From positions 1 through 9,829 of the forward strand of contig JALRJA010000235.1 in the NCBI GenBank assembly GCA_023255235.1: DNA of 9,829 bases, in the 5' to 3' direction. The notes under the pieces are model-generated. The model was not told where the DNA came from. It saw nothing but the letters and a program-made list of their open reading frames with translations, and ran no database searches. The stretch comes from Flaviramulus sp. (lineage in GTDB: Bacteria; Bacteroidota; Bacteroidia; Flavobacteriales; Flavobacteriaceae). The position numbers were made by a program, and so were the translations under genes. Below, piece by piece: positions 1-9,829 of this stretch. Positions within the stretch are counted from its first letter, which is position 1. Every line of letters begins with the position of its first letter.

Positions 1-581
1 CTATAAAAGAGGTAATTATAACAGAGTTAAATATTATAAGAAAAGGTAAAAATGCTAAAAATTTTGATGCTTCAAACATCTTTACTAACCATTTTAAAGA
101 AGTAGAACGTATTGAAAAAGAAAAAGCTGAAAAAGCTGAAGCACTAATTAAAGCATCAAAAGAAAAACTTACCAAACAAGAAGCTCAAGCAACCATTCTT
201 GAATCTGGATTAAAATATTATATTTCTGAAAAAGGTTCTGGTAACAAATTAAAAGAAGGCAACCGTATATCAATTCATTATACAGTATATTTTGAAAACG
301 GCCAGCTTTTAGAAACCAGCAAATTAGAAACCGCTAGAGCTTTAAATGCTATTAATACAACTCGTTTAGAAGGAGACAGATACCAACCAATAGACGTTGA
401 AATAATGCCAAACGCTCCTATAATTGCAGGCTTAAAAGAAGGATTAAAGCAATTGAGTTTGGGTGATAAAGCTACTTTTTTCATTCCTTACCATCTAGCC
501 TATGGCGAGTATGGTAATAGAGCTATACCCGGTAAATCTAATTTAATTTTTGAAGTTGAAATTGTTGCCCTTCTTGAATAA
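1..581 (+). CDS. Peptidyl-prolyl cis-trans isomerase, C-terminal part (probable cyclophilin-FKBP fusion), 5' truncated
   Basis: An open frame runs from base 3 to the TAA at 579-581 and gives 192 residues; the start lies outside the window. The last ~105 visible residues are an FKBP domain. It reads IHYTVYFENGQLLETS near residue 91, then AGLKEGLKQLSLGDKATFFIP and the family hallmark AYGEYGNRAIP near 166-176, ending LIFEVEIV. FKBPs catalyse prolyl cis-trans isomerisation during protein folding. The first ~24 residues (a beta strand followed by IIRKGKNAKNFDA) resemble the end of a cyclophilin domain. A charged, probably helical linker rich in E, K and A (about residues 31-62) joins the two, so the full protein is probably a cyclophilin-FKBP double isomerase. 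The FKBP domain has an insert of ~25 residues after LLETS, which I associate with Bacteroidota homologues. Its cellular location cannot be judged without the N-terminus. The FKBP call is secure; the cyclophilin call is an inference from a short tail. Confidence 0.88.
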   Translation, partial: IKEVIITELNIIRKGKNAKNFDASNIFTNHFKEVERIEKEKAEKAEALIKASKEKLTKQEAQATILESGLKYYISEKGSGNKLKEGNRISIHYTVYFENGQLLETSKLETARALNAINTTRLEGDRYQPIDVEIMPNAPIIAGLKEGLKQLSLGDKATFFIPYHLAYGEYGNRAIPGKSNLIFEVEIVALLE

Positions 582-704: not shown

Positions 705-1517
705 TCAATTTTCAATCCAACTGTAAAATTTAATATTATTCCAACCATATATTGAAATGGTAACTCCTGAATTTTCTTCAATATTTTCTGAAGAAAAATC
801 GTTAAGTATGTTAGCTAAATTGTTAAATTCAATCAAGTTTGTATATTTATAATATTTTGAAGGATGATTAACCCAATTTCCATTAGTTGTTTCTGGGTAA
901 GGTATTCTCCCTTCTCCTTCAAATTCAAATTCTATGAAATCAGGATTTTGCTCTATAATCTCTGAAAAATCTGTATAAATGTTAGTATTATTTGTATTAG
1001 TTCCGCAAACATAGGCGAATGAATTTTCTGGAACTCTAAACGTTTTGTTGTATAATGACATTGTGAAATTATTTTCGATGAGTGTTATAGATGTTTTTTG
1101 TTCGTTAATGTCAATAGAATATTTGTCAATAACACTTCCATTTAAAAAAGTTACTTTATTTGTATTTTCAGGTAATTCAATATAGGATATTGCAGGTCCT
1201 AATGCAGTGAAACATAATTCGGGTTGAATTATCTGATTAAATCTTACAATTAGTTCATTACCATTTATAAATTCAGTTGTTGACAATCCATAGTTGATAC
1301 AAGGGAATATTTCAGAGGTAATTAATTTTAGTTTTAAAATGGGTTCTTGTATTTGGTTAGTTGTATATATTTCTTCTACCATAAAATTAATTTCTGTATC
1401 AATAGAGTTCTCAATTATATATTTGGTGTAATCAGAAGTATTTAAAATACTATCATTGTTAGAGCTACAACTTAAAATGGTAAATCCAATTAAAGTAAAG
1501 ATTAGTAATTTTTTCAT
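705..1517 (-). CDS. Hypothetical lipoprotein, 270 residues, family not recognised
   Basis: The ATG at 1517 begins a clear type II signal peptide: MKK, a hydrophobic stretch, then the lipobox LS-C with lipidated Cys17, followed by SSNNDS. The mature part is acidic and rich in Asn, Thr, Ile and Glu, with many alternating hydrophobic/polar segments that suggest a beta-rich fold. There are three further cysteines (Cys73 in FPCINYG, Cys102 in ELCFTALGPA, Cys171 in YVCGTNT). Two could form a disulphide outside the cytoplasm. No catalytic motif is evident. The sequence after the cysteine (SSNND) is not a clear surface-export signal, so a periplasm- or surface-facing position cannot be decided. The gene stands alone, convergent with the isomerase gene and divergent from lgt. 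The start is supported by the signal peptide. It is surely coding, but I do not recognise a function. Confidence 0.8.
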   Translation of the reverse strand: MKKLLIFTLIGFTILSCSSNNDSILNTSDYTKYIIENSIDTEINFMVEEIYTTNQIQEPILKLKLITSEIFPCINYGLSTTEFINGNELIVRFNQIIQPELCFTALGPAISYIELPENTNKVTFLNGSVIDKYSIDINEQKTSITLIENNFTMSLYNKTFRVPENSFAYVCGTNTNNTNIYTDFSEIIEQNPDFIEFEFEGEGRIPYPETTNGNWVNHPSKYYKYTNLIEFNNLANILNDFSSENIEENSGVTISIYGWNNIKFYSWIEN

Positions 1518-1631: not shown

Positions 1632-2555
1632 ATGCAACTTTTAAAAATTGATTGGAATCCAATAACAGGAATAGACATCATTGGTAATTTTAAGCTTCAT
1701 TTTTACAGCCTTATGTGGGTTGTTGCCTTTGTTTTAGGTTGGTATATAATGAAGCGTATTTTTACTAAAGAAAAAATAGCTATTGAATTTTTAGATTCGC
1801 TTTTAATATACACTGTTTTTGCAACCATGATTGGTGCAAGGCTTGGGCATGTTTTGTTTTACCAATCGGAGTTAATTCATGACGATTTTTTTAGCATTTT
1901 TCTACCATTTAAATTTAAAGGCGGTTTTGAATTCACCGGGTTTCAAGGTTTAGCAAGTCATGGTGCAGCTATAGGTATTATTATTGGCATGTATTTGTAC
2001 CGAAAAAAATACCAATATAAATCATTGCTATGGATTTTAGACCGCGTTGTTATTTCGGTGGCTTTAGGTGCTATTTTTATTAGAATAGGAAATTTTATCA
2101 ATTCTGAAATTATTGGAAAAGTTTCAGGTGATTTTGCACTAGGCACACGCTTTATTCAAGATTATTATAACAAATATGAAGCTGTACAACTAACCGGAAT
2201 TAAAAATGTTCAAAAAGCCTATAATGCAATTGCCAATAATCCTGAATTATTGGAAGCTATTCCTTATAGACATCCTACTCAATTGTATGAATCATTTTGT
2301 TACATATTTGTATTTTTAATACTTTGGTTTTTTTATTCTAAAACTAAAAAAAGTGAACAATCGGGGTTTTTATTTGGTCTGTTTTTAATTTTACTTTGGA
2401 CTATACGGTTTTTTGTAGAATTTGTAAAAGAACCTCAAGGAGATGAGTATATTAATTGGTTTGGGCTAAATACTGGGCAATGGCTAAGCATTCCTTTTAT
2501 ATTACTTGGTCTTTACTTTATGTTTATATACAAACCTATAAACGCTAAAAAATAA
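1632..2555 (+). CDS. lgt: Prolipoprotein diacylglyceryl transferase (Lgt)
   Basis: Lgt is an inner-membrane enzyme that moves diacylglycerol from phosphatidylglycerol to the lipobox cysteine of prolipoproteins, the first step of lipoprotein maturation. The 307-residue product has about seven hydrophobic segments and the family landmarks in order: GARLGHVLFY (68-77), SHGAAIG with His110 (equivalent of E. coli His103), the signature RIGNFINSE (151-159; Arg151, Asn154 and Glu159 match the essential Arg143, Asn146 and Glu151), RHPTQLYE (213-220), and IRFFVEFVKEP with Arg259 and Glu263 (E. coli Arg239 and Glu243). Between the signature and RHPTQLYE lies an extended loop of about 50 residues. It includes a hydrophilic helix-like stretch around 190-208 and makes the protein slightly longer than the E. 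coli enzyme. The ATG at 1632 gives a complete N-terminus. A DUF192 lipoprotein gene follows after one base, so the two are co-transcribed and probably translationally coupled. The gene fits the many lipoproteins encoded nearby. Confidence 0.97.
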   Translation: MQLLKIDWNPITGIDIIGNFKLHFYSLMWVVAFVLGWYIMKRIFTKEKIAIEFLDSLLIYTVFATMIGARLGHVLFYQSELIHDDFFSIFLPFKFKGGFEFTGFQGLASHGAAIGIIIGMYLYRKKYQYKSLLWILDRVVISVALGAIFIRIGNFINSEIIGKVSGDFALGTRFIQDYYNKYEAVQLTGIKNVQKAYNAIANNPELLEAIPYRHPTQLYESFCYIFVFLILWFFYSKTKKSEQSGFLFGLFLILLWTIRFFVEFVKEPQGDEYINWFGLNTGQWLSIPFILLGLYFMFIYKPINAKK

Positions 2556-2556
2556 T

Positions 2557-3033
2557 ATGTTTAACAAGCATTATGCTTTTTCTAAAGTACTAGTCATTTT
2601 CTTTGTTTTTATAGCCTGTAAAGACGACAAAAAGGGTATTACACAAACCAAAATTTCATTTAAAAAGGAAGCCGAACTTACTATTTATAAAAAAGACTCT
2701 ACACAAGTAACCTTAGATATTGAAATAGCCAATACAGCCTATGAAATAGAAACAGGATTAATGTATAGAGATAGTATGCAAACCAACCAAGGAATGCTAT
2801 TTGTTTTTGATGATGTTGCACCACGTAATTTTTATATGAAGAATACAAAAATGCCGCTTGATTTAATTTTTATTGATGCAAATAAAAAAATAGTGAGCTT
2901 TCAAAAAAATGCAAAACCTTTTGATGAGTCTTCGTTACCTTCTGTTTTACCAGCAAAATATGTATTAGAAATTAATGCCGGTTTGGTTGATAAATGGATG
3001 ATTTCTGAAGCAGATAGCATTAATTACCAATAA
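2557..3033 (+). CDS. DUF192 family lipoprotein
   Basis: This 158-residue protein begins with a hydrophobic signal (about residues 8-20) and a lipobox ending FIA-C, giving lipidated Cys21. The mature part carries the DUF192 pattern: an early strand TQVTLDIEIA, GLMYRDSM (67-74), GMLFVFDD (79-86), then FYMKNTKMPLDLIFID (92-107), and a closing YVLEINAG (135-142). DUF192 proteins are small beta-barrel-like extracytoplasmic proteins without an agreed biochemical function, so none is assigned here. The residues after the cysteine are KDDKK. A Lys followed by two acidic residues resembles the lipoprotein export signal described in Capnocytophaga, so surface exposure is possible. The ATG lies one base after the lgt stop codon, indicating translation from the lgt transcript. 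The following gene is convergent. Confidence 0.9.
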   Translation: MFNKHYAFSKVLVIFFVFIACKDDKKGITQTKISFKKEAELTIYKKDSTQVTLDIEIANTAYEIETGLMYRDSMQTNQGMLFVFDDVAPRNFYMKNTKMPLDLIFIDANKKIVSFQKNAKPFDESSLPSVLPAKYVLEINAGLVDKWMISEADSINYQ

Positions 3034-3063
3034 AAACTGGTTTTATACAAATTACTTAATTGT

Positions 3064-3090
3064 TAAAACAAAAAGCTAATTGGTGTTTTA
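3064..3090. terminator. Weak AT-rich stem-loop between convergent genes
   Basis: TAAAACA (3064-3070) can pair with TGTTTTA (3084-3090) around a 13-nt loop in the 65-bp gap between the DUF192 and symporter stop codons. The position suits a shared terminator, but the stem has only two G:C pairs and there is no clean T tract. It is reported on position alone. Confidence 0.18.
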
Positions 3091-3098
3091 TAACCTGA

Positions 3099-4403
3099 TT
3101 ATTTGCCGGTATAATTATCATCCCAATTTTTAACTTTAGGTTCTCCTAACTTTCCTATAGATTTAGCAACAAGCATAGAAACAGCCGCATCTCCGGTTAC
3201 ATTTACAGTTGTTCTACTCATATCTAAAGGTCTATCAACAGCAAAAATAAGAGCCAATCCAGCTTCTGGAATACCGGCATAGCCAAGCACTCCAACAAGC
3301 ATTACCATACCAGCTCCTGGAACAGCCGCACTACCAATAGAGGCTAAAGTAGCCGTTGCTATAATGCCCAATTGTGTAGAAAAAGACAAATCCATACCAA
3401 AGGCTTGTGCAATAAATACCGCTGCAACAGCTTGATATAAACTTGTACCATCCATATTAATAGTGGCTCCTATAGGTAATACAAAACTAGCAACTTCTTC
3501 TTCTACACCTAAATGCTCGGTAACACGTTCCATAGTTACAGGTAGTGTTGCAGCACTACTACTTGTAGAAAAAGCTAATAGTTGTGCAGGTGAAATTCCA
3601 TTTATAAAAAAATTGGGTTTCTTTTTAGTAAAAACAAAAACCAATACAATATAAATGATTATCATAAGTAATAATCCTAAAATTACTGTTAATGAGTACC
3701 ACCCTAAAGCTTTAAATAAATCTATGCTAGGAGACTCAACAACCAATGCAGCAAGAAGTGCAAAAACACCGTATGGTGCTGCCAACATAATTAGGTCAAC
3801 CATTTTTAGAATAACTTCGTTAAAACCATCAAAGAATTTTTTAACCGTACTACCTTTATCTTCTGGAATTAGTATTAAGCCAATACCAAAAAATAAAGAA
3901 AAGAATATTATTTGTAGCATATTACGATTACTAGTAGCCGAAGAAAAAATGTTTTCAGGCACTAAATCTTCTAAAGCCTTTAGTGGTCCTGCTTCTTTTT
4001 GAGCTTTTGCAGTTTCTTTATATTGGGTGGTGTTATCGGCATAATTACCTACCATTTCTTGTCTGGTATTTTCAGAAATAGAATATCCAGGGTTTACCAT
4101 ATTTACTAAAAACAACCCTATGGTTACGGCAATAATTGTAGTGCTAATATATATTCCAATAGTGCGACCACCCATTTTAGATAGTTTAGAAATATCTTTT
4201 AAATCTGAAACGCCTTTAATTAAAGCCGCTAAAATTAATGGTATAGCTATGAGCTTAAGTGCATTAATAAATATTGTGCCAAATGGTTTTACCCAATCTT
4301 GAACAAGCTCTTTGCCGCCTTCAAAAGTTGTCATTACTAATCCTAGAATGACACCAAAAAGCATTCCTAATAATATTTTCCAATGTAATGCGAGTTTTTT
4401 CAT
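3099..4403 (-). CDS. Dicarboxylate/amino acid:cation symporter (DAACS/SLC1 family), probably acidic amino acid uptake
   Basis: This 434-residue inner-membrane protein belongs to the glutamate transporter family, which couples uptake of Glu, Asp or C4-dicarboxylates to Na+ or H+. The family elements appear in order: the serine-rich hairpin-1 tip STSSSAATLP (279-288), the TM7 cation-site motif NMDGT (316-320), the hairpin-2 sequence GSAAVPGAGMVML (357-369), and TM8 DRPLDMSRTTVNVTGD (390-405). In TM8, Asp394, Arg397, Thr398, Asn401 and Asp405 match the substrate and cation residues of archaeal GltPh. Arg397 is the residue that binds an acidic side chain in that family, so glutamate or aspartate is a better guess than a neutral amino acid. 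A polar loop of about 35 residues follows TM3 (roughly 105-140). The gene lies 179 bp downstream of the racemase-like gene on the same strand. It may have its own promoter in that gap, though I found no convincing TTG/TAnnTTTG pair there. The family is certain; the substrate is inferred. Confidence 0.95.
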   Translation of the reverse strand: MKKLALHWKILLGMLFGVILGLVMTTFEGGKELVQDWVKPFGTIFINALKLIAIPLILAALIKGVSDLKDISKLSKMGGRTIGIYISTTIIAVTIGLFLVNMVNPGYSISENTRQEMVGNYADNTTQYKETAKAQKEAGPLKALEDLVPENIFSSATSNRNMLQIIFFSLFFGIGLILIPEDKGSTVKKFFDGFNEVILKMVDLIMLAAPYGVFALLAALVVESPSIDLFKALGWYSLTVILGLLLMIIIYIVLVFVFTKKKPNFFINGISPAQLLAFSTSSSAATLPVTMERVTEHLGVEEEVASFVLPIGATINMDGTSLYQAVAAVFIAQAFGMDLSFSTQLGIIATATLASIGSAAVPGAGMVMLVGVLGYAGIPEAGLALIFAVDRPLDMSRTTVNVTGDAAVSMLVAKSIGKLGEPKVKNWDDNYTGK

Positions 4404-4582
4404 AATAAGGCTTTAAGTGGTTTTGTTTAATTAGTAAAAGTACTATTTTAATTTAAAAACATATCCTAAAGCATAATTCATTTATAATCAAGCAATAGAC
4501 ATCTTTTCAAAATTTAACGAGTTTATAATCAATAAAAATAATAAAGTAATATTTGTGATTTTAGGTTTTATGAATTGGTTTA

Positions 4583-6118
4583 TTATATTTTACTCTTTTC
4601 TGATAGGTGCTGGGTCTTAGGATTTTGGTAATTGAAATTTTGCATTAATTGATATACATAAGGAATTTGTTTCTGAAAACGGGTTAATATATCATAAGAA
4701 ATATTATTCCTACTAAAGGGCACTATCTTAACATATTCTTGAATTTGGTTTGCATCTCTACCATATTTATAATTATAAGTAAAGCGACCATTAGAGTCTA
4801 TAATATTATTTGCATTGTCTTTATTGGCTACGCTTATATAAAACTCACTATCTTTTATATTACCAACTGGGTTAAATAAAGCCTCTTGTTTTAAATACTG
4901 ATGTAATTCTTTAGCAGTATCTACAGCAGGGTCTATTAGATTAGTATTTTTAACCATAAAATCTCTGTAAAAGTAATTGCCATTTTTACCTTTATAATTG
5001 TATAACTCTTTTAAAATAGCATTAATTTCTTCAATCATATATGGGTAATGTGTACAACCTAATATGATGGATTTCAATTTGTTTTTTGTTTTAGATTGAC
5101 GAATTTGCTCCATAAGCGTTACCAAATGGTAACGTACATAATTTTTAGCATCGTTAATTTGAAGAACTGAACAATTGGTTAACTCTTTGGTGTCACATAG
5201 CATTTTACTATTGCTAAAATCAAAATTATAAATATCAAAAAGTGTTCGGTCTATTTTTACGTCGTTATCTAAACTAGGTCCTTTGTAATTATCTCTAGGT
5301 TTTTTAAGGTTTTTATTATAGTAATTAAGGTCTTCATCAATAGCTTCGGCAATTCCAACGCCTCCTTGTGAGAATACTTCAATGTTGCCTGTATAACCTA
5401 ACTGATCTTTAAATTTTAACAATGTGTTTTGATATCCTTTTGATGCTACGGTTCCTGTTGTAGCCAAAACACCAATAATGGCATCTTCATCTTTTTTAAT
5501 AGTAGCCAGTGTACCTCTTACGCCAGCATCAATAACGCCAATAACTTTTAAATTAGAATTTGCTTTTTTTAGAAACGCTTCTATGTGTTCTTTGCCATAA
5601 GCAGTTGCAGTATTGCAAGCAATTACTAATGCTTTAACAGGCTGTTTATCTGTTTTAACCATAGTATCTAAAGCATCAGTGTAATACTTATTACTCATTA
5701 AAAATTGAACATCTTTAATAATGTGCTCTTTTAATAAATCGACCTTATTTTCTGTTGAATAATTTCCATAAGGCATATTTGCTTGATCTCCTAAATAGAT
5801 AAAGGATTCTTTTATAAAATCTATTTCTCCATCCTCTCCACTTTCATGATTTTTGTTATTGTTTTGGTCATAATTTACAATTGCTTTTAGTACTGTAAGA
5901 CCGCCTGTACCAGAATCGAACACACCAATGGGTAATTCTTTTTTCTTATTAGGGTAGTTTTTAAAATCTATATAATAAAAACTTTCTTTGTCTTTTATTA
6001 TAGTTGAAACTATATCGCTGTTTTCAACTGCAGCTTGTAAAACTTCTTTTTTCTTCTCTTTTTTACAACTTATTATCAATAATGCTAACAGGAAGTATGC
6101 TAGTTTATGCTTGTTCAT
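4583..6118 (-). CDS. Lipoprotein with a glutamate racemase (MurI-like) core, extracytoplasmic
   Basis: The 511-residue product starts with a lipoprotein signal (MNKHKL, hydrophobic core, LIIS-C; lipidated Cys18). The rest is a recognisable Asp/Glu racemase: PIGVFDSGTGGLTVLKAI (63-80), YLGDQANMPYG (108-118), LVIACNTATA with catalytic Cys168, VIGVIDAG (192-199), IGVLATTGTVASKGYQ (215-230), LGCTHYP with catalytic Cys355 and neighbouring His357, and LIDPAVDTA (394-402). Known MurI enzymes interconvert L- and D-glutamate by a cofactor-free two-cysteine mechanism in the cytoplasm and have about 265 residues. This one is nearly twice as long: a ~45-residue linker after the lipid site, a ~15-residue insert after the first motif, an insert of about 70 residues near 257-325, and a C-terminal extension of ~105 residues. 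Both cysteines are kept, so activity is plausible. The exported position argues against a role in making cell-wall D-Glu and for using external D-amino acids. The ATG lies 2 nt after the stop of the amidohydrolase gene. The substrate could also be aspartate or another acid. Confidence 0.88.
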   Translation of the reverse strand: MNKHKLAYFLLALLIISCKKEKKKEVLQAAVENSDIVSTIIKDKESFYYIDFKNYPNKKKELPIGVFDSGTGGLTVLKAIVNYDQNNNKNHESGEDGEIDFIKESFIYLGDQANMPYGNYSTENKVDLLKEHIIKDVQFLMSNKYYTDALDTMVKTDKQPVKALVIACNTATAYGKEHIEAFLKKANSNLKVIGVIDAGVRGTLATIKKDEDAIIGVLATTGTVASKGYQNTLLKFKDQLGYTGNIEVFSQGGVGIAEAIDEDLNYYNKNLKKPRDNYKGPSLDNDVKIDRTLFDIYNFDFSNSKMLCDTKELTNCSVLQINDAKNYVRYHLVTLMEQIRQSKTKNKLKSIILGCTHYPYMIEEINAILKELYNYKGKNGNYFYRDFMVKNTNLIDPAVDTAKELHQYLKQEALFNPVGNIKDSEFYISVANKDNANNIIDSNGRFTYNYKYGRDANQIQEYVKIVPFSRNNISYDILTRFQKQIPYVYQLMQNFNYQNPKTQHLSEKSKI

Positions 6119-6120
6119 AG

Positions 6121-7677
6121 TTATTTCTTTTTTAATACTTTTCCATTTAAAAGCTTAGTGAATTTACCATTTGCAACAGAGAGTTTTCCGTTAATAATGC
6201 TATATTCTAAACCTTTGGCATACTCAAAGGCGTTTTTGTAGTCTGCTATGTCTCTAAATGTATTTGGGTTAAATATGATAATATCGGCATAATAGCCTTC
6301 TTTAAGCTCACCTCGTTGTGCTATTTTAAATATGTTTGCAGTTTTTGAGGTGCTTTGATTTATAAAAGTTGCCAAATTTAAAACACTGTCTTGTTTCACG
6401 TATTGGTTATACTTTCTTGGAAATGTGCCATATTTACGAGGATGACCTGTATTACCATCTGATCCTGTAACTACCCAATCTTGTTTCATGAAATTTGTAA
6501 TATCTTTAGAATTCATATTAAAGGAAGCTACACGCACATAGCCAGTTTCTAAAATAGGATATACAGCTTCTTCTGGTGGTAAGTTTAACACATCTGCTAT
6601 TTCTTGAAGCGTTTTACCTATATATGTAGTGTTATTACATTTTACAATAAGGAGTTTTGTTGGACCGCCACGACGCATAATATTGTCTTTGGTTTCATTA
6701 ACTATTTTTTCTTTAAACTTTGGCTGTTTTACACGATACAATAAAGAATCTTTACCACCACTTTCTGCCCAACGAGGCGATACAGCAGCGTTTAAACTTG
6801 TGCCAGAAGCATCATAAGGATACTGATTTGCAGTAACTATAATACCTTCTTTTCTAGCAGTTTCAATAATTTTTATAATAGAATCACTTTGATGCCAAAC
6901 AGAAACACCTAAACACTTAATATGCGAAATGTGAATGGGTAATTTTGCTCTTCTACCAATTTCTATAGCTTCTTTAACAGATGCTACTAAACCAATGGTA
7001 TTAGAGCTTTCATCACGTAAATGTGTATCGTAAATACCTTGGTTTTTTGCAACAATTTTAGCTAGTGCTATAACTTCCTCTGTACTGGTATAACTTCCTG
7101 GTGAATAATATAAGCCTGTTGACATGCCAAACACGCCTGCATCCATTTCCTTTTGAATTAAATCTTGCATTTGGGCTATTTGCTCTGCACTTGGCTCTAT
7201 ATCACTTTTACCAATAACAGCCTCCAAAATTTGATGATGTCCTACCAATTGAACAACATTAGTACCAATACCTTGTTGTGTATATAGTTTTTGATATTTT
7301 TCGCTTGGGTAAAAACTATCTCCATCGTTACCAACTACAACTGTTGTTACGCCTTGTAATAGAAAAGGTTTATTATGTGATAGTGTTGAATCTTTTAATT
7401 CTCTGTCTGCATGTGTGTGAGGGTCTATAAAACCAGGAGATACTATAAAACCACTAGCATCAATAGTTTTTGAAGATTTAATTTCAACATTGTTTTTATT
7501 GCCTACAAAAACAATTCTATCGTTTTTTATGGCTATTGACACATCATAACTTGGAATGGTGTTTTTTCCATCATAAACAATTCCATTTATTATTAAAATA
7601 TCGGCTTTAATCTCTTTTTTACATGAAATAAAGCTGCCTATTAGAATTGAAACAAAAAGTAGGTTTAATTTTTTCAA
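6121..7677 (-). CDS. N-acyl-D-amino-acid deacylase (D-aminoacylase) family lipoprotein, TTG start
   Basis: This amidohydrolase-superfamily protein (518 residues, normal for the family) is expected to hydrolyse N-acyl-D-amino acids to D-amino acid plus acid. Motifs in order: PGFIDPHTHAD (81-91; His87 and His89 bind metal), QGVTTVVVGNDG (108-119), GVFGMSTGLYYSPG (181-194), THLRDE with His219, ISHIKCLG with His252, YPYDASGTSL (286-295), SDG with Asp407 (catalytic), HPRKYGTFPR (412-421), and GELKEGYYADIIIFNP near the end. The usual metal-ligand cysteine of GNCG (Cys96 in the Alcaligenes enzyme) is Asp118 here. The start is a TTG at 7677: an in-frame TAG comes immediately before it, and only this start gives the full lipoprotein signal with its FIS-C lipobox (Cys19). 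The gene lies 24 nt after the M14 gene and 2 nt before the racemase gene, within one operon. Substrate specificity cannot be read from sequence; N-acyl-D-glutamate would fit the neighbours. Confidence 0.9.
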   Translation of the reverse strand: MKKLNLLFVSILIGSFISCKKEIKADILIINGIVYDGKNTIPSYDVSIAIKNDRIVFVGNKNNVEIKSSKTIDASGFIVSPGFIDPHTHADRELKDSTLSHNKPFLLQGVTTVVVGNDGDSFYPSEKYQKLYTQQGIGTNVVQLVGHHQILEAVIGKSDIEPSAEQIAQMQDLIQKEMDAGVFGMSTGLYYSPGSYTSTEEVIALAKIVAKNQGIYDTHLRDESSNTIGLVASVKEAIEIGRRAKLPIHISHIKCLGVSVWHQSDSIIKIIETARKEGIIVTANQYPYDASGTSLNAAVSPRWAESGGKDSLLYRVKQPKFKEKIVNETKDNIMRRGGPTKLLIVKCNNTTYIGKTLQEIADVLNLPPEEAVYPILETGYVRVASFNMNSKDITNFMKQDWVVTGSDGNTGHPRKYGTFPRKYNQYVKQDSVLNLATFINQSTSKTANIFKIAQRGELKEGYYADIIIFNPNTFRDIADYKNAFEYAKGLEYSIINGKLSVANGKFTKLLNGKVLKKK

Positions 7678-7680
7678 CTA
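7675..7680 (-). other. TAG-TTG junction that fixes the non-ATG start of the D-aminoacylase gene
   Basis: Read on the minus strand, an in-frame TAG (7680-7678) is followed directly by TTG (7677-7675) and two AAA codons. No in-frame ATG occurs between the stop and the lipobox cysteine, so TTG is the only start that preserves the signal peptide. No strong Shine-Dalgarno sequence precedes it. Translation may depend on ribosomes finishing the M14 gene 24 nt upstream. Confidence 0.75.
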
Positions 7681-7701
7681 ATTATGGTTTAAGTTTTCAA
7701 T

Positions 7702-8922
7702 TTATTTAAGTAATACTTTCATCATCTGCTCAGCAGTTGCTTTACCAATAACTTGTATTCTGTCTTTAGGAGTTGCATCTCCAATTTCATAAGTTATACC
7801 AGTAGCGTTATGCCCATTTAAAAACCACCCTTTTGAAACTGGTTTTTTACTATTGCCTGCCTCTTCATTTACCTTATAATTAGGAATATTTTCTTCTAAT
7901 GCTTTAAACCAGTTGGTTATAAAATTTGGAAGTGTTGTTCCTTCTCTTATTTCATTTGTATAAAACACATCTTCATAAGTAGAATGAAAATCTAAGCCTA
8001 AAATGAGTTTAGCATTGTTTTTTTTCAGCGTTTTGGTAATGTGTTTTACGGTTTGTTTTATCTCTGGTTGGTTATAAACAGACCAGTCTCTGTTTGTATC
8101 TACACCACCTGCATTATGTCGCCAATGACCAAGATCAACCCCATCGGGGTTTATTATAGGAAAAGCTAATACACGATATTTATTCAAAAATGTATCTGAA
8201 AGGTTTGAGTTGTTTAAAATAGTTTTTAAAAACTCTTGAAATGCAAAAAAACCTGTTACCTCTGGTGGGTGTTGACGTGTTAGTAAAACAATAATATCTT
8301 TGTTTTTTTTGCTTCCCTTGTATATATCAAGAACTGGTAAGTTGCGTTTTAATTTTGATTTTCCAAAATTGCTTACGTGTACATAATCTTCTTTTCCTTT
8401 AATTAAGTTTAAATACCACTGCTTAACATTGGTTGAGGTATTAATTTCTTGAGCAGCAACCAATAAAGGATTGCTGTTTAAATCTAGTTTAATAGTTACC
8501 GTATCACCCCTTTTAAAAACATTTGTAGAGTCTATAATATGCCACAGATTGCCGTTTTTAAGTTTAGGTATATACCTGTGCTTATATTCTTTTGGATATT
8601 GAAAAGTTAAGTAAAATGGTTTAGGGGTTTTTGACCAAATTTTAAAAGCATAATAAGCACTATTGTTAATAGGTTCATTTTCAGGGTTTATTATAAGTAT
8701 AGCGGTGCTATCATTTGTTCTTTTAAAACCGTTTAGTCTTGCACCATCAAACTCGTTGCTGGCATATACACCAATAGTATCTAATGCAAAAGTTTGTTTT
8801 TTTTGATTTGAAATAGCTTTGGTTGTTGTATCTACTGGTGTTTCAAAAGAAACGGTATCTATACTTTTACAACTAACTATAATTAAAAAAGCAACTAATA
8901 AGTGGTAATAATTAAGTTTCAT
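7702..8922 (-). CDS. M14 family zinc carboxypeptidase lipoprotein
   Basis: The 406-residue product has a lipoprotein signal (hydrophobic residues 8-16, LIIVS-C, Cys18). It then has a domain of about 190 residues that looks beta-rich, and a zinc carboxypeptidase catalytic domain. Catalytic features are complete: RQHPPEVTG with zinc ligands His218 and Glu221, NPDGVDLGHWRHNAGGVD with Arg268 (like carboxypeptidase A Arg127), NRDW with Asn277-Arg278 (like Asn144-Arg145), DFHST with zinc ligand His313, and TYEIGD with catalytic Glu379. M14 enzymes remove C-terminal residues from peptides, and some act on gamma-D-Glu-diaminopimelate bonds of peptidoglycan. The HPPE and NPDGV...WRHN patterns recall the Nna1-like branch, but I cannot assign a subfamily firmly. 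The ATG overlaps the stop of the preceding M14 gene by four bases (ATGA). The two proteins are clear paralogues. Its place before an amidohydrolase and a racemase suggests it supplies trimmed peptides or amino acids to them. Confidence 0.93.
   Translation of the reverse strand: MKLNYYHLLVAFLIIVSCKSIDTVSFETPVDTTTKAISNQKKQTFALDTIGVYASNEFDGARLNGFKRTNDSTAILIINPENEPINNSAYYAFKIWSKTPKPFYLTFQYPKEYKHRYIPKLKNGNLWHIIDSTNVFKRGDTVTIKLDLNSNPLLVAAQEINTSTNVKQWYLNLIKGKEDYVHVSNFGKSKLKRNLPVLDIYKGSKKNKDIIVLLTRQHPPEVTGFFAFQEFLKTILNNSNLSDTFLNKYRVLAFPIINPDGVDLGHWRHNAGGVDTNRDWSVYNQPEIKQTVKHITKTLKKNNAKLILGLDFHSTYEDVFYTNEIREGTTLPNFITNWFKALEENIPNYKVNEEAGNSKKPVSKGWFLNGHNATGITYEIGDATPKDRIQVIGKATAEQMMKVLLK
8919..8922 (-). 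other. ATGA stop/start overlap linking the two carboxypeptidase genes
   Basis: On the minus strand the sequence ATGA holds both the ATG of the second M14 gene (8922-8920) and the TGA of the first (8921-8919). Such overlaps usually indicate translational coupling and support a single transcript. Confidence 0.85.
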
Positions 8923-9829
8923 TTAGGACTGTTTTTAGTTGTTAATAATACTTTTATCAACTCTTTAGCATATACCTGTGCTCTTTCTCTAATTGTATTA
9001 CGGTCTATTTCATCGCCGTCTTCATAGGTAACTGCTTCACAATTATAGGTGTTGTAAAAATAGTTGTAGCAATAAGGAAGTTCTTGGCTGCGTCTTCTGG
9101 CTTCAACTTTAAACTTTGAGTTGTTTTCGATAGCACTTATCCAGTTTGGAATAATTTTAGTTGTTTTAAATTCATTTAAAGAATCTAAAACTAACATGTA
9201 TGGTCCTGAATGCGATGTGTGAAAATCTATTGCAAATAGTATTTTTTTACCGTTTTTAATTTTGTTCTTTAGGTATTTATCTACCATTTGTGTTTCTGGT
9301 TGAGTAAAGTTTTGCCAATCTCTATTTAAATCTACACCGTTAGCGTTATGTCTCCAATTACCCATGTCAACACCATCTGGGTTTAACAAAGGGAATGTGT
9401 AAATATTAAAATGATTTCTAAAGGTTTTTGCTATTGCTGAATTGCTTAATAAAGTTTCATAAAAAGCTTTAAACCCAATAGTTCCTCCGGGTATTTCAGG
9501 AGGATGCTGTCTTGCAATTAAAACAATAGAATTTACTTGACTGCTATCTTCAATTTCTAAAACATAGTTTGATTCATTTAATACCGTTTTGCCAGCTTCT
9601 ATTTTTTTTATTTTGTGGTGTTTTATTAAAAGGGTATCAATCCAAGAATAGGTGTTTTTTGATGATTCAATTTCTTGAGCAGCAACATACAGTTTTTTAG
9701 GCGAAACATTAAGTTTTAAAGTAGCTGTTCCTGAAAGAGTATCAACCTTTATTTTTTTTGCATCAATTGGTTTCCATATTTTTTTATCATTGCTTAGCTT
9801 AGGTATATAGCGATGTTTATATTTATTAT
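8919..9829 (-). CDS. M14 family zinc carboxypeptidase, 5' end outside the window
   Basis: The reading frame is open from the window edge to the TGA at 8919-8921, giving 302 residues. A TTG at 9389 is internal to the conserved NPDGVD region and is not the real start. Upstream of it lie a conserved KHRYIPKL segment, VAAQEI, and the zinc motif ARQHPPEIPGG (around 9486-9515). Downstream are NPDGVDMGNWRHNANGVDLN and RDW, the third zinc ligand in DFHTSHSGP (His codon 9219-9221), and the catalytic Glu in TYEDGDE (codon 9021-9023). All catalytic residues are therefore present. Aligned to the downstream paralogue, about 110 N-terminal residues are missing, presumably including a lipoprotein signal. 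The closest differences from the paralogue are around the substrate pocket (TSHSGPYML against STYEDVFYT), so the two enzymes may prefer different C-terminal residues. It is the first visible gene of the minus-strand operon, whose promoter lies beyond the window. Confidence 0.93.
   Translation of the reverse strand, partial: NKYKHRYIPKLSNDKKIWKPIDAKKIKVDTLSGTATLKLNVSPKKLYVAAQEIESSKNTYSWIDTLLIKHHKIKKIEAGKTVLNESNYVLEIEDSSQVNSIVLIARQHPPEIPGGTIGFKAFYETLLSNSAIAKTFRNHFNIYTFPLLNPDGVDMGNWRHNANGVDLNRDWQNFTQPETQMVDKYLKNKIKNGKKILFAIDFHTSHSGPYMLVLDSLNEFKTTKIIPNWISAIENNSKFKVEARRRSQELPYCYNYFYNTYNCEAVTYEDGDEIDRNTIRERAQVYAKELIKVLLTTKNSPK

What the first reader, a model, noticed from the sequence alone, without database searches (positions are those of the whole stretch)
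3099..9829. Candidate envelope pathway for D-amino-acid salvage: peptidases, D-deacylase, racemase, importer
Two M14 carboxypeptidases, a D-aminoacylase-type amidohydrolase and a racemase are packed with gaps of -4, 24 and 2 nt, and three of the four visibly carry lipoprotein signals. A DAACS symporter with the acidic-substrate arginine (Arg397) follows on the same strand. The order suggests peptide trimming, release of D-Glu (or similar) from an N-acyl form, conversion to the L form outside the membrane, then uptake through an L-selective carrier. Likely sources are peptidoglycan stem peptides (gamma-D-Glu) or poly-gamma-glutamate. I do not know a described system with this composition.
Basis: inference. 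Interest (0 to 1): 0.78.

Follow-up and report, generated by a model that had tools for sequence, protein, structure and literature searches.

The report
Envelope D-glutamate salvage operon
A flavobacterial operon encodes enzymes with lipoprotein signals that likely digest D-glutamate-containing peptides, probably scraps of other bacteria's cell walls, outside the cytoplasm; one of them is a glutamate-racemase relative that would turn D-glutamate into ordinary L-glutamate before uptake, whereas racemases of this type are normally cytoplasmic enzymes for building cell wall.

Summary
In detail: five same-strand genes (two M14 carboxypeptidases, a D-aminoacylase-like amidohydrolase, a MurI-type racemase, a DAACS symporter), gaps -4, 24, 2, 179 nt. 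The window stops short of the most telling part: in 16 of 19 named relatives a SusC importer gene lies upstream, with FecR in 9; the own genome has a 79%-identical SusC stub beside FecR/ECF-sigma genes on another contig. The racemase family is distinct (511 aa; both catalytic cysteines 30 of 30 rows, lipobox 29 of 30), separate from the housekeeping MurI the genome also has. The amidohydrolase is directly upstream in 18 of 19. Three distant racemase relatives lie within 3 kb of an AmpG-like gene, with a NagK-like gene alongside, two also by a NagZ-beta-lactamase fusion, pointing to peptidoglycan. Such symporters are common (123 of 149 genomes), but 11 of 12 cluster-linked copies form one clade. 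Best reading: SusCD import of D-Glu-containing peptides, likely peptidoglycan stem peptides, M14 trimming, D-Glu release, racemisation outside the cytoplasm, L-Glu uptake. No activity is shown; D-Glu specificity and source are inferred. The amidohydrolase has Asp where known D-aminoacylases have a zinc Cys (19 of 19). New variant of a known kind.

The parts
8919..9829 (-). M14A: M14 zinc carboxypeptidase, 5' end cut by the contig end (302 aa present)
   Evidence: Pfam PF00246 65.8 bits; HPPE, NRD, DFH, YE motifs; full-length relatives carry lipobox-like signals
7702..8922 (-). M14B: second M14 zinc carboxypeptidase, lipoprotein signal, overlaps M14A by 4 nt
   Evidence: PF00246 56.4 bits; HPPE218, NRD277, DFH311, YE378
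6121..7677 (-). AMH: D-aminoacylase-like amidohydrolase with lipoprotein signal (TTG start); Asp118 at the position of the zinc-site Cys
   Evidence: closest solved structures 9g5m, D-aminoacylase 1rjp/1m7j, N-acyl-D-Glu deacylase 3gip; alignment of 19; metal and alpha-carboxylate residues (with PMC12017989)
4583..6118 (-). RAC: MurI-type glutamate racemase relative with lipoprotein signal, 511 aa, Cys168 and Cys355 at the catalytic positions
   Evidence: TIGR00067 106.7 bits; Foldseek top hits glutamate racemases, E 1.8e-13, from a low-confidence model; alignment of 20; 30-row cysteine table
4404..4582 (-). 179-nt gap between RAC and symporter, no terminator-like site found
   Evidence: 0 terminator-like sites in 2990-4650 (shuffles 0.9 +/- 1.0); 11 promoter-like matches (shuffles 7.9 +/- 2.7)
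3099..4403 (-). SYM: DAACS (SDF) glutamate/aspartate-type symporter, Arg397
   Evidence: PF00375 421 bits; nearest solved relative 'Aspartate transporter' 9bgz; clade of cluster-linked copies

Best explanation
This is a PUL-like operon that likely imports D-glutamate-containing peptides (probably peptidoglycan stem peptides) through a SusC/SusD pair probably encoded upstream, is predicted to dismantle them with envelope lipoproteins, and would convert the freed D-Glu into L-Glu outside the cytoplasm with a predicted lipid-anchored MurI-type racemase before a symporter takes it up. Proposed steps, all inferred: M14A/M14B remove C-terminal residues (in the peptidoglycan case cleaving gamma-D-Glu from diaminopimelate, as MpaA does); the D-aminoacylase-like enzyme hydrolyses the N-acyl (for example L-Ala) bond of the remaining D-Glu; the racemase equilibrates D-Glu with L-Glu; removal of L-Glu by the symporter pulls the reaction. 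Shown: gene order, conservation, lipoprotein signals and catalytic residues in sequence, and SusC/SusD/FecR context in relatives.
For: Conserved unit in 19 named loci: AMH directly upstream of RAC in 18, M14 in 16, SusC upstream in 16, SusD families 4/9 in 15 (L047 has a SusD of another family), FecR-family gene upstream in 9, SYM in 9, gamma-glutamyltranspeptidase in 5 (Pfam in all 5). Own genome: SusC stub 79% identical to the L035 cluster SusC at the end of contig C196, next to FecR and an ECF sigma gene. RAC: catalytic Cys motifs 30 of 30, lipobox-type Cys 29 of 30, L038 called short; on the far side of a fully supported branch from 23 MurI proteins; own MurI elsewhere. Residues after the lipid Cys: RAC mean 2.4 Lys/Arg and 0.95 Asp/Glu, SusD and LP10 1.6-2.5 Asp/Glu and no Lys/Arg; acidic residues there mark surface lipoproteins (PMC5080379, passages), so RAC probably faces the periplasm. 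AMH keeps residues that bind the substrate alpha-carboxylate (Lys254, Tyr286, Arg414) and the catalytic Asp407 (PMC12017989). Peptidoglycan: RAC relatives L062 and L066 lie on one strand with NagK-like, AmpG-like and GH3-beta-lactamase genes, L063 with the first two (every NCBIfam score below its cut-off); L047 carries a gene nearest to DgcA / L-Ala-D/L-Glu epimerase (below cut-offs); some relatives add a 2,4-diaminopentanoate-dehydrogenase-like gene and an fn3 lipoprotein whose C-terminal domain is modelled with a fold like MurNAc-L-Ala amidases, N-formylglutamate amidohydrolase and carboxypeptidases.
Against: No activity, expression or localisation data. AMH lacks the Cys zinc ligand of known D-aminoacylases. 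D-Glu selectivity of AMH could not be tested (alignment to 3gip stops before Arg295). M14A/M14B score 20-22 bits against MpaA (cut-off 157). AMH of >=57% identity occurs without RAC in 3 of 149 genomes (G024, G147, G032), and more distant AMH relatives occur in more (29 of 149 at E<=1e-40 in all). 6 of the 8 distant RAC loci lack AMH within the fetched stretch, and 3 of the 8 (L061, L064, L065) lack recognised peptidoglycan-salvage neighbours too. SYM was not seen in 10 of 19 loci. The own-genome SusC is on another contig, so linkage is inferred from relatives; the MAG is 77% complete. A Cys-Cys racemase needs reduced thiols, which a periplasm may not favour (inference).
Confidence: 0.55

Rival explanations
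1. The substrate is poly-gamma-glutamate or another gamma-glutamyl polymer: the peptidases and gamma-glutamyltranspeptidase trim it, AMH cleaves D-Glu ends, RAC makes L-Glu.
Confidence: 0.15
2. General scavenging of N-acyl-D-amino acids or D-residue peptides from dissolved organic matter; AMH is broad and RAC handles only the acidic fraction.
For: AMH relatives occur without RAC (G024 with SusCD, M14B and the dehydrogenase-like gene); a TonB receptor beside a D-aminoacylase was predicted for N-acyl-D-amino acids (PMC3400609, passages); the changed metal site may mean changed chemistry.
Against: The tight pairing with a glutamate-type racemase and, in some loci, an Arg397 carrier points to Glu/Asp.
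Confidence: 0.2
3. RAC works in the opposite direction, making D-Glu outside the cytoplasm (cell-wall editing, signalling or recycling of the cell's own wall).
For: Racemases are reversible; exported racemases that make D-amino acids are known (BsrV, BsrF, RacK; PMC12502697, passages).
Against: SusCD importers, peptidases, a deacylase-like enzyme and a glutamate-type carrier accompany it; a housekeeping MurI is present.
Confidence: 0.07
4. RAC is not a working extracytoplasmic racemase: a degenerate or binding protein, or a cytoplasmic enzyme with a chance lipobox.
For: Below the TIGR00067 cut-off; large insertions; the periplasm may oxidise its thiols.
Against: D68, S69, Y117, G118, C168, N169, T170, C355, T356, H357 invariant in 20; catalytic Cys in 30 of 30 and lipobox-type Cys in 29 of 30.
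Confidence: 0.08
5. The symporter is an unrelated core gene that happens to lie downstream (compatible with the best explanation for the other four genes).
For: SDF carriers at E<=1e-100 in 123 of 149 genomes; linked in 9 of 19 loci; 179-nt gap.
Against: 11 cluster-linked copies form one clade (support 0.99) against 27 copies from genomes without a full-length RAC; no terminator-like site in the gap.
Confidence: 0.3

Closest known systems
E. coli murein-tripeptide catabolism (MpaA, YcjG, PepD) and B. subtilis YkfABC
   Same: Metallo-carboxypeptidase or NlpC/P60 step at gamma-D-Glu-DAP, then D-Glu to L-Glu conversion and dipeptide cleavage (PMC2954226, passages)
   Different: There conversion is an epimerase acting on L-Ala-D-Glu; here the predicted order is deacylation first, then a free-Glu racemase, with enzymes carrying lipoprotein signals and a SusCD importer
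MurI glutamate racemase
   Same: Catalytic Asp-Ser, two Cys and His motifs; fold by a weak model
   Different: 511 vs 256-275 aa, lipoprotein signal, own clade, salvage context; genome keeps a normal MurI
D-aminoacylase / N-acyl-D-glutamate deacylase / OngB (subtype V amidohydrolases)
   Same: Homologous along the barrel; two zinc His, catalytic Asp, Lys/Tyr/Arg for the alpha-carboxylate
   Different: Asp in place of the zinc Cys in 19 of 19; lipoprotein signal; specificity residue not assignable
Marine DgcN-DgcA D-glutamate pathway
   Same: Turns acidic D-amino acids into L forms (dgcN: PMC12363236, passages)
   Different: Works through N-acetylation and an enolase-type racemase (recalled); no DgcN-family (PF07755, assignment recalled) match in the own genome, 77% complete
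Secreted broad-spectrum racemases BsrV, BsrF, RacK
   Same: Racemase exported from the cytoplasm (PMC12502697, passages)
   Different: PLP-dependent, alanine-racemase fold (recalled), make D-amino acids; RAC is of the cofactor-independent Cys-Cys type
Bacteroidota polysaccharide utilisation loci
   Same: SusC/SusD pair, sigma/FecR genes, clustered enzymes with lipoprotein signals
   Different: Peptide and D-amino-acid enzymes in place of a glycoside-hydrolase set

Membership tests
MurI glutamate racemase (TIGR00067) | Catalytic Asp/Ser, two Cys (CNT, CTH) and His | tested here: met
   invariant in 20 aligned; Cys motifs 30 of 30
MurI glutamate racemase (TIGR00067) | Score over the curated equivalog cut-off | tested here: not met
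   106.7 vs 146.65 bits
MurI glutamate racemase (TIGR00067) | Asp/Glu racemase fold | tested here: met
   top Foldseek hits glutamate racemases, E 1.8e-13, TMt 0.70, TMq 0.39, but model pLDDT only 56.6
MurI glutamate racemase (TIGR00067) | Cytoplasmic (no export signal), about 260 aa | tested here: not met
   511 aa, lipobox-type Cys in 29 of 30 by sequence; 23 MurI are 256-275 aa; location itself not measured
MurI glutamate racemase (TIGR00067) | Racemises glutamate | not testable with these tools
   needs enzyme assay
Subtype V D-aminoacylase | Zinc site Cys-His-His | tested here: not met
   Cys is Asp118 in 19 of 19; His219 and His252 kept (PMC12017989)
Subtype V D-aminoacylase | Catalytic Asp and alpha-carboxylate residues Lys, Tyr, Arg | tested here: met
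   Asp407, Lys254, Tyr286, Arg414 invariant; mapped by the alignments
Subtype V D-aminoacylase | Score over the NCBIfam subfamily cut-off (best hit NF006560) | tested here: not met
   172.2 vs 340 bits
N-acyl-D-glutamate deacylase | Arg (BbDam Arg295) for the gamma-carboxylate | tested here: inconclusive
   alignment to 3gip ends before it; a basic residue at 302 in 19 of 19
MpaA murein tripeptide amidase | M14 zinc and catalytic motifs | tested here: met
MpaA murein tripeptide amidase | Score over NF007897 cut-off | tested here: not met
   20.4 and 21.8 vs 157 bits
DAACS acidic amino-acid carrier | SDF domain and Arg in the DMSRT motif | tested here: met
   421 bits, Arg397
DAACS acidic amino-acid carrier | GltP equivalog cut-off | tested here: not met
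   264 vs 638 bits
SusCD utilisation locus | SusC/SusD pair in the locus | tested here: inconclusive
   16 of 19 relatives have SusC upstream; in the own genome a SusC stub on another contig; own SusD not searched for
DgcN-DgcA pathway | DgcN (PF07755) and DgcA-like genes in the genome | tested here: inconclusive
   no match in G000, 77% complete; the epimerase/DgcA query had no control genome

The most novel reading that the evidence does not exclude
First nutrient-scavenging glutamate racemase of the cofactor-independent MurI type working outside the cytoplasm: a lipid-anchored enzyme, patchily but repeatedly present in Flavobacteriaceae and in other lineages of the phylum, that turns D-Glu from other bacteria's peptidoglycan into L-Glu inside a SusCD peptide-utilisation locus, so that the cell eats foreign cell-wall D-Glu without mixing it with its own MurI-made D-Glu pool; its partner is a D-deacylase with a new Asp-containing metal site.
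Probability: 0.42. Interest if true: 0.75.

Novelty: new variant of a known kind. Interest (0 to 1): 0.62.

Why it matters
D-amino acids are described as important components of recalcitrant deep-sea organic matter (PMC12363236, abstract), and the D-Glu routes I know of act in the cytoplasm (recalled; E. coli and B. subtilis routes in PMC2954226). A lipoprotein that racemises D-Glu outside the cytoplasm would be a new way to use it, would let an L-Glu carrier serve a D-amino-acid diet, and would give a marker gene for peptidoglycan-peptide consumption that sources now name 'glutamate racemase', 'Asp/Glu/hydantoin racemase' or 'hypothetical protein'.

Tried and rejected
Ala-racemase-type racemase in the own genome: no PF01168 match. 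Link of the fn3 protein to the FGase-like gene of L067 by profile comparison: none (probability 0.6%). Sigma-70 promoters near the symporter: 11 vs 7.9 +/- 2.7 in shuffles, no clear excess. Epimerase and DgcN in the own genome: none found, incomplete MAG; the epimerase search had no control genome. D-Glu specificity of the amidohydrolase by alignment to 3gip: not reached. Structure of RAC: only pLDDT 56.6 with 20 close sequences; the second fold job went to a homologue of the fn3 protein. Gene calls in scripts are mechanical longest-ORF choices: the RAC starts of L040 and L048 were called inside AMH, and RAC of L038 short; L038 was left out of the trees; the simple rule misplaced some lipobox cysteines. 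First RAC/MurI tree held only 5 MurI because minus-strand loci were not turned; repeated with 23. Literature: the listings of searches (open-licence PMC only; several lists capped, e.g. 12 of 76) show no lipoprotein MurI-type racemase or this operon; I saw titles and abstract starts only, apart from passages of PMC3400609, PMC2954226, PMC12363236, PMC6987092, PMC12502697, PMC5080379, PMC11382707 (nothing used from it) and PMC12017989, and section 10 of the last. So absence from print is not shown.


Full report
What is in the window. The window is a whole contig (G000:C316) of a 2.07-Mb, 456-contig, 77%-complete MAG. On the minus strand lie M14A (cut by the contig end), M14B, an amidohydrolase (AMH), a racemase (RAC) and a DAACS symporter (SYM), with gaps of -4, 24, 2 and 179 nt. 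On the plus strand a prolipoprotein diacylglyceryl transferase and a DUF192 gene converge on the operon's end.

The racemase. RAC hits glutamate racemase models over two stretches (TIGR00067 106.7 bits, below the 146.65 cut-off) and solved glutamate racemases. An AlphaFold2 model from 20 close sequences is weak (pLDDT 56.6; parts of the core 70-93), yet Foldseek puts glutamate racemases on top (E 1.8e-13). Among 20 aligned relatives the MurI catalytic residues and the lipid-anchor Cys18 are invariant. In 30 RAC rows both catalytic Cys motifs occur in 30 and a lipobox-type Cys, judged by eye from its context, in 29; the miss is L038, called short. Besides the lipid Cys the window protein has four Cys: the two catalytic ones and a C308/C316 pair that could form a disulfide; the pair is kept in the close group and in L060 and L067 but absent in the six most distant rows. 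The genome has a separate MurI with a 268-aa frame. RAC and 23 MurI proteins lie on opposite sides of a fully supported branch (with 5 MurI agrees). Full-length RAC (54-100% identity) is in 6 of 149 genomes of the family and in 8 of 394 phylum genomes at E<=1e-20 (both counts include the own genome): patchy, not a core gene. Some sources name such proteins 'glutamate racemase'.

The neighbourhood in relatives. A genome-contig scan gave 19 named loci (Flaviramulus, Gaetbulibacter, Hyunsoonleella, Flagellimonas/Muricauda, Gelidibacter, Flavobacterium degerlachei, and MAGs incl. one labelled Saprospiraceae). L037 and L044 are the same contigs as the G034 and G018 hits. Of the 19: AMH directly upstream of RAC on the same strand in 18 (not L041), with called gaps of -4 to +64 nt in 15 of the 18 (L040 and L048 RAC starts called inside AMH, L038 RAC called short); M14 in 16; SusC upstream in 16 (misses: L038, a 6.2-kb contig; L041; L045, where 7.3 kb read N); SusD of two families in 15; a FecR-family gene upstream in 9 and a sigma gene in 3 (Pfam on L042; the rest by clustering); SYM in 9; an fn3 lipoprotein family in 9; gamma-glutamyltranspeptidase in 5 (Pfam in all 5; in L052 downstream of RAC); a 2,4-diaminopentanoate-dehydrogenase-like gene in 3. 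Two more close loci, L068 and L069, also pair AMH and RAC. The own genome holds the first 555 residues of a SusC, 79% identical to the L035 cluster's, running off the end of contig C196 after FecR, with an ECF sigma gene divergent beside it. In relatives such genes precede M14A, so the missing upstream part may lie there; physical linkage is not shown.

Location. After the lipid Cys, RAC rows average 2.4 Lys/Arg and 0.95 Asp/Glu, AMH 1.4 and 1.0, M14 1.4 and 0.6; SusD and LP10 average no Lys/Arg and 1.6-2.5 Asp/Glu; the fn3 protein none and 0.9. Acidic residues there are the surface-export signal (PMC5080379, passages). So the enzymes probably face the periplasm and act on what SusCD brings in. 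The simple rule misplaced some Cys, so this is a trend.

The amidohydrolase. Its nearest solved relatives are 9g5m, D-aminoacylase, OngB and N-acyl-D-glutamate deacylase. Known subtype V enzymes bind zinc with Cys-His-His and hold the substrate alpha-carboxylate with Lys, Tyr and Arg (PMC12017989, passages and section 10). AMH keeps both His, the catalytic Asp407 and Lys254/Tyr286/Arg414 but has Asp118 in place of Cys in 19 of 19; the L060 homologue also has Asp there. It may therefore work like a D-aminoacylase but fails one defining feature. The D-Glu residue could not be aligned.

Symporter. Yet 11 of the 12 cluster-linked copies tested form a clade (0.988) apart from 27 copies from genomes without a full-length RAC, with one of those (L118) as sister; the twelfth, L067, is distant and served as root. 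The contexts of the 27 were not inspected. The symporter lineage seems to travel with the cluster as an optional part.

Counter-observations. AMH of >=57% identity without RAC occurs in G024 (with SusCD, M14B and the dehydrogenase-like gene), G147 and G032. G006 keeps SusCD, M14B and SYM, while AMH and RAC are truncated around one break.

Known systems. E. coli (MpaA, YcjG, PepD) and B. subtilis (YkfABC) degrade murein tripeptides with an epimerase (PMC2954226, passages). DgcN handles acidic D-amino acids in marine bacteria (PMC12363236, passages). Exported racemases BsrV, BsrF and RacK are described in PMC12502697 (passages), where changed glutamate symporters let a D-Glu auxotroph grow on less D-Glu, which suggests that the wild-type carrier takes D-Glu less well. 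A TonB receptor beside a D-aminoacylase, and one for peptidoglycan in Pedobacter, were predicted in PMC3400609 (passages). The listings of searches, some capped, show no MurI-type lipoprotein racemase or this gene set.

Verdict. The symporter link and the exact substrate are weaker, and no biochemical step is shown.

Noticed in passing
L034 11550-12857 and relatives (fn3 lipoprotein C-terminal domain): Uncharacterised domain with 752 relatives at E<=1e-5, many of the 120 listed with a T9SS tail domain (PF18962, name recalled); model folds like Zn amidases, FGase and carboxypeptidases, with invariant His, Asp and Glu.
   Followed up: partly
window 6121-7677, residue Asp118: D-aminoacylase-like family with Asp in place of the zinc-binding Cys in 19 of 19, also in L060: possibly a new amidohydrolase metal-site subtype.
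   Followed up: partly
L037 6233-7225, L038, L039, L068, L111: 2,4-diaminopentanoate-dehydrogenase-like gene, no lipobox found in the rows tested, in the same cluster; might act on diaminopimelate released from peptidoglycan.
   Followed up: no
L070 9714-11014 (G006): Decayed copy of the cluster: AMH and RAC both truncated around one break; importer, M14B and symporter frames open.
   Followed up: partly
window 1632-2555 and 2557-3033 (+): Prolipoprotein diacylglyceryl transferase (Lgt) and a DUF192 gene convergent with this lipoprotein-rich operon.
   Followed up: no
window 705-1517 (-): 270-aa protein with a lipoprotein-like start and no Pfam or NCBIfam family.
   Followed up: no
window 3-581 (+): FKBP-type peptidyl-prolyl isomerase, weakly similar to BamJ, cut by the contig start.
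   Followed up: no
window RAC residues C308 and C316: Extra cysteine pair in the close group, L060 and L067, absent in the six most distant rows; candidate disulfide of an envelope enzyme.
   Followed up: partly
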